NCBI RefSeq assembly: GCF_902729405.1
Contig: NZ_LR746496.1
Location: forward strand, 2,852,001-2,916,000
Length of the DNA: 64,000 nucleotides
Origin: Acididesulfobacillus acetoxydans
GTDB lineage: Bacteria > Bacillota > Desulfitobacteriia > Desulfitobacteriales > Desulfitobacteriaceae
Direction: 5' to 3'
Part shown: in pieces, positions 15,117 through 19,241 of the stretch
How the letters are laid out: each line of letters opens with the position of its first letter
Position numbering within the stretch: position 1 is the stretch's first letter
The notes under the pieces: generated by a model
Told to the model about the DNA's origin: nothing
The model's database searches: none
Seen by the model: only the letters and a program-made list of their open reading frames with translations
Position numbers and translations under genes: made by a program

Positions 15117-16218
15117 GAATTCGTCCTGAGGTGGCCAGATTTTAAGTGAGGTTCAGAGTTATTTTGTCCGTAACTGCAAAAAAGTATAAAGAATGATTAG
15201 AATAGTCGTGAGTATCCCCTCCCTGGCCCCAGATTACTACCCTTAAATATGAGAAAAAATTTCAAGACTTTTTAAAAAAGGTAGGAATGTTGCATCCTCT
15301 GCGGTCCCTGCACCGTAGTCTGTCCAGTTTACAGTGAGGTAAAACGGGAGACGGCTGTGGCCCGGGGCAGAATAAGACTGGTTAGGGAACATCTAGACGG
15401 GAGTTTGGACCTGAGCGCTACCATGAGGAACTATTTGGATTTATGCCTGGGTTGCCGGGCCTGTGTGGTCAGCTGCCCGCCCCAGGTTCCAACTGACAGA
15501 ATCGTCAGGGCGGCCCGAGCCAAGTATGCTGTCCAACAAGGCCAGCCGCTGGTGCGTCATGTGCTACTGCGCAATGTCTTGAATAAGCCCGAACGTTTTT
15601 CCCTGGCCCTGGACTCAGTTAAACTTGTACGCACTGTCAGGCTCAATCATCTCTTCCCCAAGACACTCAAAGCAAAAGAGGATTTATTGCCTGAGCTTCC
15701 GGAGCAAACGTTCTGGGAAATGCTCAAAGGGCGCAAGCTGAAGAAAAGTGCCAAAAAAACGGGCTTTTTCTTAAGTTGCATGGATAATAACGTCTTTCCC
15801 CAAGTCGTCATGCAAGCCATAAAAGTTTTGGAAAAACTGGATTTTGAAGTGGTCATCCCCACTGGTATTGTTTGCTGCGGTGCGGCCCATCACAACTACG
15901 GGGATTTGGACAATGCCCGCCGGCTGGCGCGTCAAAACATCCGGGCCTTCGCCAGCGCAGATGTGAAGGTTATCCTGACCGACTGCGCTTCTTGTGAGTC
16001 AACCATGCAATCCTACGGCGAACTCTTCGAGGGAGAAAAGGAAGAAGGGGAGGCCCAAAACTTCGCCAGCAGGGTCATGGACATCAACGTCTTCTTGCAG
16101 GATAAAATCGTATCCGGTTCTCAGCCGGTCGATGCTATCGCAACTTATCACGATCCCTGTCATGCAGTCCGCTATCAGAATATTAAGGAGGAACCCCGCA
16201 AGGTGGCAGCTGCAGGGG

Positions 16219-16405
16219 GTGAACCACCCCCGCTTACGCTTCGCTAAGAAGCGGGGGCTTCTCGGCGAACACTTGGACGTTGGCTTCCTGTTTCATCAAC
16301 CGTTGCCCTCGTCCAGTACTCAAGGTTTCTCAGTGCTGGATGAGGTCTTACGCAATTTCCACAGGCGTAACTTCGGGCGGTTCCCGCCCTACAGAAAATC
16401 TATAT
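16219..16405 (-). ncRNA. candidate omega (reRNA) guide RNA of the TnpB element
   Basis: In TnpB systems the RNA runs from the 3' end of tnpB through the right-end hairpin into the flanking host sequence, which serves as guide. Here the scaffold would cover 16405-16219 and the guide would start at 16218, reading CCCCTGCAGCTGCCACCTTG. Position and hairpin are seen; transcription is inferred. Confidence 0.5.
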
Positions 16406-17275
16406 TTAGGCCATGACACTCAGTCCACGCTCTAAGATGAGTTTAGCACTCACTAGATCCCGATCCATCACTAATCCGCAAACGGGGCACTCATGGACAC
16501 GGACACTGAGATCTTTGGGGACATGCGCTCCACATAAGCAGGTTTGCGATGTGCCCTTGGGGTCAACTAGAACGTGTCGTTTCCCCTGGCGTAAACTTTT
16601 GCACTCAATGTAGTCTCCGAATTTCCCCCATCCGGCATCCTGGATGCTCTTGGCGAGTTTGTGATTTCGGATCATGTTTTTTATCCTTAGATCCTCCATG
16701 ATAATAAGGTCATGGTTCTTGACGATCTGAGCACTTGCCTTGTGGAGAAAGTCCCTGCGTTGGTTGGCGATTTTGGCGTGTACTTTGGCGACCTTCGCTT
16801 TGGCCTTCCCTCGGTTGTGTGAACCTTTCTTTTTGCGGTAAAGCCTGCGCTGTTCCTTGGCAAGTTTTTTCTCTGTTTTGCGGAAGTACTTCGGGTTGTC
16901 GATATACGTTTCGTCAGACAAAACCGCAAAATGGTTGATGCCGCGATCAATGCCCACTGCTTTCATGGCATTTTCTACCGGCTCAGCCTCTGGTATTTCA
17001 GTGGTTAGATTAGCGTACCACTTGCCGCCATGGTATTTGACATTGACCCGCGAAATAGCCTGGGCCGGAAACTCTCGGTGAACGTTCATCTTAATAAAGC
17101 CTATTTTTGACAAGTAAATACAACCCGGTCTGCTGAACGTCTTCTTGACATTATCCACTTGCGGATAACTGAATGAAGTGTAGTGGTCCCGGTCTTTGTA
17201 ATGTGGATATCCGGCAAGACCGCTGAAAAACCGTTTGAAAGCATCCTCTAGTCGACGCAGCGCATCTTGAAAATA
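16406..17275 (-). pseudogene. tnpB: N-terminally truncated TnpB RNA-guided nuclease
   Basis: The RuvC core is complete: Asp in VGIDRGINHFAV, Glu in IIMEDLRIKNM, Asp in VMDRDLVSAKLIL, with a zinc-binding loop CLCGAHV ... HECPVCG. The N-terminal part is missing. The frame opens only after a TAG at 17278-17276, at YFQDALRRLEDAFKRFF, which in full TnpB lies about 70-80 residues from the start. The element's left end begins immediately before. The first codons after the left end (ATGGACATTCACGAAAAAGC) are in another frame, so a deletion plus frameshift removed the wedge/REC start. It probably cannot be a normal nuclease unless it starts internally (GTG 17158). Confidence 0.8.
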
Positions 17276-17770
17276 CTATAGGCTTTTTCGTGAATGTCCA
17301 TAGCGATTCATCCCCCGCCTATAGAGGCCTATAGAGGACGGGGGACTTCTCGCAAGCCATGTTAAAGTGGAGGAAATGGCTGAAGCCGACCGCTGCTGCG
17401 GCGGCGGAGGGACTTTTAACATTTTCCATTATCAACTTTCTATGAAAATTCTCGACCGTAAAATTGAAAATGTGCGCAAAACCGGGGTCTCTATCGTGGC
17501 TACTTCTTGCCCGGCCTGCCGTATTCAGTTGGCTCACGGCCTGAAAAGGCACGGGCTGGCGCTCAAAGTTTTGCATCCGGTTGAACTGTTAGCCGAATCC
17601 TATGGGAAAGGGGAGTGAGAACGCCTGAAAATGCAAATGAGCAAACTGCAATGGCAGAGCGCGTCAGGGAGCAGTTATGTCTAGACAAAGACATGTGTGT
17701 GGAATTTGTGATGTGGAGAAGGGGTGGAAGGTAAAGATAGAACAACCGCATTTTCAGAGGGGGATAAACA

Positions 17771-17977
17771 ATGGCCAATTATTCCGAAGTAGAGGACAGA
17801 ACCATCAAGAAATTATGGACCCGCCTCATCCCATTCATTTTTATTCTCTACATTGTCTCCTTCCTGGATCGGGTCAACCTGGGCTATGCTGCGCTTACCA
17901 TGAACAAGGCCCTGAATATCAGCAGTACGGCGTTCGGACTAATATCGGGCATTTTCTTCTTCGGTTACTTCATTTTT
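17771..17977 (+). pseudogene. N-terminal fragment of an MFS transporter
   Basis: From ATG 17771, about 69 residues match the start of anion:cation symporter-type MFS proteins: TIKKLWTRLIPFIFILYIVSFLDRVN, cut here for length, then GYAALTMNKAL and the first two membrane segments through FFFGYFIFE. After that the sequence changes abruptly to the antisense of a histidine-kinase fragment. The remaining ten or so membrane segments are absent from the window. It probably once followed glcF as a glycolate/lactate or dicarboxylate uptake gene; that is inference from position. Confidence 0.75.
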
Positions 17978-18145
17978 GAATCAAATCCCGGCCCCAAATC
18001 AGAAATTTCAAAACGAATTTCCCTGGATTCTTCCTCAGCCTTTATGGTGATACTGCCGCCATCTGGCAGGTATTCCAGGCTGTTGCATACGACATTATCA
18101 AGAACACGCTCCAATTTTCCCAGATCAATCTTATAAAGGGTATCC
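17978..18145 (-). pseudogene. histidine kinase ATPase-domain fragment
   Basis: About 55 residues on the minus strand: DLGKLERVLDNVVCNSLEYL is an N-box-like segment, then PDGGSITIK and EISDLGPGF resembles the G1 box of HATPase_c. The upstream side ends at the right end of a TnpB element at 18146 and the downstream side ends at the MFS fragment, so only a middle piece survives. Confidence 0.7.
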
Positions 18146-19241
18146 TTGAACCTCCCCGGACTGAAGTCAGAGGATTCCCGGTTGCTTCCGGGGACTTCGT
18201 ATCTGCCTGGGGTACACGTTAACCGAAGTGATCGGGCCGTAGGCCCCACTGCTGATTCCGCATTTTACCCAGTCCAAAAGACCAGCGGGTTCGTGCCTCA
18301 TCCGGTTAACCCTATAGGCTAACCGAACGCCTAGCCGTCACCGGCCAGGGCTTAAAGCGTATTCAGGCAAGCCATTTTTTTCTGAAGTTCCGGCCAATAC
18401 CGAGTGAACCGATGTAGTCCGCGTTCACGTCTTTGACGCCACAGGTCGGGCATTTAGCGAGAGCCACGCCTTGGTAACGCGTGAATGTACCCCCGCAGTA
18501 GGGGCATTCTTTAGATGTATTCCTGGGACTGACCCGGTTGACCACAATCCCTTCGTGCAGCGCCTTATACCGGGTATACTTGACAATCCGCCCTTTGACC
18601 CAGAAGATAAATTTCTGGTTGAGCCGGTGAGACTGGGTTCCCTTGCTGGGCTTGAGGTTTGTTAGGTGCTCAAAGACGATGGTTTTAGCTCCGTGCTTTT
18701 TGGCAAACTCCACAATGGCCCTCGAAACCCGGTGTGCCACATCATCGTTGAAGTTGCCAATTTTATCCCAAAGGTCTGCCGCAAAGCGTTCTCCTTCAGG
18801 AATCACCCGGGTCTGTTTCTGAAGTCTCACAACTTTCTCAAGATAGCTCTTCCTAAGATGATTGTCCTCACCACCCGATATAACCTTGGTGGCTAAGACT
18901 CGACCTTTCCTATCCTGAATCGTCATGACGAGATGGTGGTTGATCCCTAAGTCCACGCAGCACATTCTGAAGTCGGTCTTTCCCACTCTGACCTGGACAC
19001 TCTCCAACTTTACCGCTTTTCTCGGCAGCACTACCGGTACGTGTAACTGCCAGCCGCTCTGTTTATGGATGAGCATGGGGGTTCCCGCCTCATACCCAGC
19101 CGGTACAATCAGGGGTTGCAGATCAGTATGGTTTGATGTACATGGTAGGTTTTGTCTTTTTAAAGCGACATAGCGCGAATGTGCCAGGTTTGAAGGAAGA
19201 TGCAGATGATCCTTAAACAGGGAATAAAAATCTGAACTTCC
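18146..19241 (-). mobile_element. second TnpB-encoding IS605-type element, left end lost
   Basis: The right end on the minus strand has the typical hairpin CCTCTGACTTCAGTCCGGGG followed by AGGTTCAA ending at 18146, inside a histidine-kinase gene. The opposite side runs straight into the feo promoter at 19246 with no kinase sequence, so the left end was removed by a rearrangement. 18146-18362 would carry the guide-RNA scaffold. Confidence 0.65.
18363..19241 (-). pseudogene. tnpB: TnpB-family nuclease, N-terminus truncated
   Basis: This differs clearly from the TnpB at 16.4 kb. The RuvC Asp is in CCVDLGINHHLVM, the Glu in TIVFEHLTNLK, the final Asp in DVNADYIGSLGIG, with zinc knuckles CPYCGGTF and CPTCGVKD. 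The frame is open back to a TAG at 19244-19242 (FKDHLHLPSNLAHSRYVALK can be read), but the only ATG, at 19076, starts after the usual N-terminal domain. No start codon supports a full-length product. Likely a decayed copy. Confidence 0.75.

What the first reader, a model, noticed from the sequence alone, without database searches (positions are those of the whole stretch)
16219..17361. TnpB element in glcF whose empty site, TAM and guide can be reconstructed from sequence
Cutting exactly from the right-end GGTTCAC (16219) to the left-end CATGG (17361) rejoins glcF in frame (AAAGVKVEEM). It also brings TTTAA (minus strand, 17366-17362) directly next to CCCCTGCAGCTGCCACCTTG, the 20 nt that follow the right end. 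That is the arrangement expected if the element's guide RNA targets its own empty site. The tnpB copy has lost its N-terminal part, so the element looks frozen.
Basis: partly seen in the sequence, partly recalled or inferred. Interest (0 to 1): 0.72.

Follow-up and report, generated by a model that had tools for sequence, protein, structure and literature searches.

The report
Broken IS605 transposon with reconstructable empty site
A 1.1-kb jumping gene of a well-known kind (IS605) sits in a lactate/glycolate-oxidase-type gene; related bacteria confirm exactly where it landed and which sequence its guide RNA would recognise, but the arrangement is normal for this family and this copy has lost its own working enzymes.

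Summary
The 1143-bp insert (16219-17361, minus strand) is a decayed IS605-type member of the IS200/IS605 family. A congeneric genome carries the same gene uninterrupted, and its junction equals 16218 joined to 17362. A second copy's empty site, from the same relative, fixes the cut points to the base (TTTAA| ... TTCAC|). All nine left ends found in this genome, and five of six in relatives, directly follow TTTAA. The right-end RNA shows compensatory base changes and fits TnpB guide-RNA (omegaRNA) anatomy.

Two corrections. 'Frozen' is too strong: tnpA and about 75 TnpB residues are gone, but both ends are intact, same-ended miniatures (several nearly identical) lie at separate sites, and one copy elsewhere still has an open tnpA. 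And no complete TnpB of this subfamily was found in the genome, so self-targeting probably cannot run now from the family's own enzyme.

By-product: the omegaRNA is homologous to the Helicobacter small RNA HPnc0580, already known to lie in mini-IS605.

The parts
16219..17361 (-). IS605-type element, 1143 bp, internally deleted
   Evidence: ends shared with other copies in the genome; empty site in relative L050
17300..17361 (-). left end (LE), starts CATGG, with subterminal hairpin
   Evidence: about 95% to other LEs; DNA fold z -3.7
17362..17366 (-). TTTAA target site / expected TAM abutting the left end
   Evidence: 9/9 left ends in own genome, 5/6 in relatives
16406..17275 (-). tnpB remnant: 289-codon open frame without its N-terminal part (about 75 residues fewer than intact L099 TnpB, 362 aa from its first Met); RuvC D, E, D align with ISDra2 TnpB
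16219..16394 (-). predicted omegaRNA scaffold, ending at the right end TTCAC
   Evidence: covariation, R1 match, homology to RF02269
16219..16270 (-). right-end (RE) hairpin
16199..16218 (-). predicted guide CCCCTGCAGCTGCCACCTTG
   Evidence: first 20 nt after the right end
15357..16218 (+). 5' part of the interrupted GlcF/LdhH-like Fe-S subunit gene
17362..17618 (+). 3' part of the same gene
   Evidence: LdhH model resumes at 632 after ending at 626 in the 5' part

Best explanation
A single-strand-transposing IS605-type element inserted 3' of TTTAA, on the minus strand, in a GlcF/LdhH-like gene (shown by empty-site comparison). It later lost about 690 bp, all of tnpA and the start of tnpB, through a junction at a short T-run (shown by comparison with copy L009). 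It is now non-autonomous: its hairpin ends could still be acted on by TnpA from another copy (inferred). Its right end still encodes an omegaRNA whose 3' guide is host sequence matching the empty site next to TTTAA (RNA structure supported by covariation; guide inferred from anatomy). With a working TnpB that RNA would direct cutting of the empty site and restoration of the element by recombination (known for the family, not shown here). Because the TnpB copies of this subfamily found in this genome are all broken, that last step is probably inactive now.
For: Empty sites for two independent copies. TTTAA at 9/9 own-genome left ends. TnpB family membership and aligned D/E/D residues. L009 copy with an open 134-aa Y1 TnpA but tnpB frameshifted before the third catalytic Asp. 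Complete TnpB in a relative, L099. Conserved RE RNA with 6 pairs changed on both sides. Model R1 finds 13 places in this genome, mostly copies of this element. Deletion junction.
Against: No RNA data for this organism. Supply of TnpA or TnpB in trans is assumed. Other TnpB subfamilies in the genome might or might not use this omegaRNA. The TAM is inferred from insertion sites, not measured.
Confidence: 0.72

Rival explanations
1. The element is completely dead: ends and RNA are decaying remnants, with neither excision in trans nor any omegaRNA function. (Same origin, different present state.)
For: Own TnpA absent, own TnpB truncated, no intact TnpB of the subfamily found; several other copies are fragments, and the only open tnpA sits in a copy with a truncated right end.
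Against: Ends match the family consensus; miniatures differing by 0-3 substitutions (L012-L015) show fairly recent spread of elements with ends alone; one tnpA is open.
Confidence: 0.22
2. The miniatures and this copy are guide-RNA donors for a TnpB of another subfamily in the genome, so targeting of the empty site is still live.
For: Several other long open TnpB frames (e.g. 3241680, 4487216, 2194589); miniatures retain the whole omegaRNA-coding right end.
Against: The right end is also needed by TnpA, so its retention does not require omegaRNA function; the omegaRNAs of those TnpBs were not compared.
Confidence: 0.05
3. The TTTAA/guide juxtaposition is chance.
For: None found.
Against: TTTAA at all 9 left ends with different flanks; background about 0.001 per position.
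Confidence: 0.01

Closest known systems
IS605 and mini-IS605 of Helicobacter
   Same: TTTAA flank at left end (PMC2993954); subterminal hairpins; right end TTCAC; homologous RNA at the right end (RF02269/HPnc0580); miniatures made of the two ends
   Different: Different bacterial phylum; different variable hairpin in the RNA; the window copy keeps most of tnpB
ISDra2 TnpB (PMC8612924)
   Same: TnpB with aligned D/E/D; flank motif doubling as TAM; guide just outside the right end
   Different: ISDra2 uses TTGAT; its TnpB is complete and tested
PATE-like IS605 derivative in Halanaerobium (PMC7290912)
   Same: LE hairpin + last 58 nt of tnpB + RE; the miniatures here are LE + about 50 nt of tnpB + RE
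   Different: One copy there; several loci here, some nearly identical
TnpBs with TTTAA TAM, e.g. ISAam1 and SisTnpB1 (as reviewed in PMC12477157)
   Same: TTTAA as TAM
   Different: Reported as recognised TAM there; only inferred from insertion sites here

Membership tests
IS200/IS605 family, IS605 type | Y1 (HUH) TnpA in the autonomous form | tested here: met
   L009 copy: PF01797 8.6e-40; absent from the window copy itself
IS200/IS605 family, IS605 type | tnpB gene | tested here: met
   NF040570 2.4e-71, PF01385, PF07282
IS200/IS605 family, IS605 type | Insertion 3' of a fixed tetra/pentanucleotide, no target duplication | tested here: met
   TTTAA in 9/9; empty sites without duplication
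IS200/IS605 family, IS605 type | Subterminal hairpins near both ends | tested here: met
IS200/IS605 family, IS605 type | Transposition by TnpA | not testable with these tools
   needs an excision assay
TnpB-omegaRNA (OMEGA) system | Structured RNA ending at RE, guide outside the element | tested here: met
   covarying structure and abrupt end of similarity at TTCAC; the RNA itself was not observed
TnpB-omegaRNA (OMEGA) system | Complete TnpB with N-terminal and RuvC parts | tested here: not met
   window copy lacks the N-terminal part; L009 lacks the C-terminal part. A relative (L099) has a complete one
TnpB-omegaRNA (OMEGA) system | RNA-guided, TAM-dependent cleavage | not testable with these tools
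   biochemical assay needed

The most novel reading that the evidence does not exclude
OmegaRNA-carrying miniatures of IS605 spread and persist without a matching TnpB, here and in Helicobacter, where the published small RNA HPnc0580 is their omegaRNA; such orphan guide RNAs may serve a TnpB in trans or have gained another role.
Probability: 0.25. Interest if true: 0.55.

Novelty: new member of a known kind. Interest (0 to 1): 0.3.

Why it matters
It is a clean worked example in which host junction, target motif and guide are all fixed by comparison, so a cleavage test of the empty site is straightforward with the intact L099 TnpB. The general principle is already established. The more useful by-product is the sequence-and-structure homology between this omegaRNA and HPnc0580: it offers an identity for a catalogued H. 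pylori small RNA and suggests that omegaRNAs of mini-IS605 elements are transcribed.

Tried and rejected
Search for another target of the guide (TTTAA + 14 nt): the best match is the element's own right end (2 mismatches, TTCAC in place of TTTAA); four places have 3 mismatches against one in the reversed control, so no convincing second target. Chance TTTAA rejected. The Rfam HPnc0580 hit first looked like noise (below gathering score) but held up in the genome-wide scan and in Helicobacter. A prophage CDS overlapping HPnc0580 (L139) was suspected to be TnpB but matched no family. The Campylobacter hit L130 proved to be IS607, not IS605. Empty sites for L009, L012, L013, L016, L018, L021 and L022 could not be resolved because the relative's sequence diverges at the junction. 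A viral-contig scan for the HPnc0580 consensus found nothing. No structure prediction was run; the homology was already clear.

Full report
What is there. The interval 16219-17361 holds a 1143-bp insert read on the minus strand. Its tnpB remnant is an open frame of 289 codons without its N-terminal part; the 250-aa ORF inside it matches NF040570 (2.4e-71), PF01385 and PF07282, and its D/E/D residues align with those of ISDra2 TnpB in solved structures.

Copies in the same genome. The insert finds 22 matches in the 4.52-Mb genome. L009 (2342800-2346600) keeps the left end, an open 134-aa Y1 transposase and most of tnpB, but tnpB is frameshifted before the third catalytic Asp (the frame breaks at CPVAD*) and about 70 nt of the right end are missing. 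Five miniatures (L012-L016; 391, 391, 402, 466 and a right-truncated 280 bp) consist of the left end, a short middle piece and the right-end region beginning about 50 nt before the tnpB stop. L012-L015 differ from one another by 0-3 substitutions apart from short repeat-length differences. Their flanks are unrelated, so each is a separate insertion.

Boundaries. Every left end recovered in this genome (9 of 9) directly follows TTTAA, and complete right ends stop at TTCAC (one, L010, reads TCCGC). Among relatives, 5 of 6 left ends follow TTTAA, the exception (L082/L087, one site) following TTCAT. TTTAA occurs at about 0.001 per position in the window.

Empty sites. A same-genus genome has the host gene whole (L050, 85% protein identity) and aligns across the join of 16218 and 17362; a same-order genome (L052) does too. 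The miniature L015 also has an empty site in the same-genus genome (TTTTTTGA|AACCTC against TTTTTTAA|AACCTC), which removes the 1-nt ambiguity caused by a C on both sides of the window junction. The joined reading frame is intact, and the LdhH model ends at position 626 on one side and resumes at 632 on the other.

The RNA. Right-end regions from 15 copies (own genome and relatives labelled Desulfosporosinus MAG, Pelotomaculum, Desulfoscipio, Desulfotruncus and others) align with a strongly conserved core and give 26 consensus pairs, six of them with changes on both sides that keep the pair. A covariance model from this alignment (R1) matches the window at 16219-16394 (the window is one of its sequences) and 13 places in the genome.

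Link to HPnc0580. Rfam's HPnc0580 model weakly matched the window. Genome-wide, all nine of its hits lie on copies of this element (these are homologous copies, so they count as one observation), and it also touches right ends of relatives. In Helicobacter plasmids and a prophage the HPnc0580 model scores 114-124 bits inside short elements with TTTAA shortly before a left hairpin and CTTCAC after a right hairpin. R1, built without Helicobacter, finds the same four places full length (E 1e-8 to 1e-6; rough calibration) and nothing in the H. pylori G27 plasmid used as a control; it also matches the 3' end of an IS607 tnpB in Campylobacter. A 2019 paper states that miniIS605 contains HPnc0580 (PMC6531487), and TTTAA-flanked mini-IS605 elements were described in 2010 (PMC2993954). 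In the papers held I found none that links HPnc0580 to TnpB; that search was limited.

How it most likely works. Established for the family: TnpA moves the element as single-stranded DNA to the 3' side of the target motif; TnpB uses an RNA ending at the right end plus adjacent host sequence to cut the empty site next to the same motif, prompting copying back of the element (PMC8612924; PMC10278001). For the present state of this copy, an internal deletion (from about position 91 to about 780 of the L009 element, at a T-run) removed tnpA and the tnpB start. No complete TnpB of the subfamily was found in this genome, whereas a relative has one (L099). I infer that re-homing at this site is probably off, while mobility by TnpA in trans remains possible.

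Verdict. Confirmed observation with an ordinary explanation: a new member of a known kind. 'Frozen' should read 'non-autonomous'.

Noticed in passing
window 16219-16394 (-); L137-L140: The omegaRNA is homologous to Rfam HPnc0580 (H. pylori small RNA carried by mini-IS605), which gives that small RNA a likely identity as an IS605 omegaRNA.
   Followed up: partly
window 16199-16218, compared with L050 and L052: The window flank lacks 3 nt (in frame) at about guide positions 14-16, close to the 15-21 nt region where ISDra2 TnpB cuts. Single case; miniature L015 shows no such indel.
   Followed up: partly
window 18363-19076 (-): A second, different truncated TnpB (closest to the Cas12f2/TnpB models) about 1 kb from the first.
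   Followed up: no
window 17771-18249: MFS transporter start cut short and followed by an oppositely oriented histidine-kinase ATPase fragment, suggesting a rearrangement breakpoint; the same-genus relative matches only to about 17853.
   Followed up: partly
L130:2249-2384: The IS605 omegaRNA model also matches the 3' end of an IS607 tnpB in a Campylobacter plasmid (E 4.6e-6), suggesting related scaffolds across IS605 and IS607.
   Followed up: no
L082/L087 (G039:C5): A left-end relative preceded by TTCAT instead of TTTAA.
   Followed up: no
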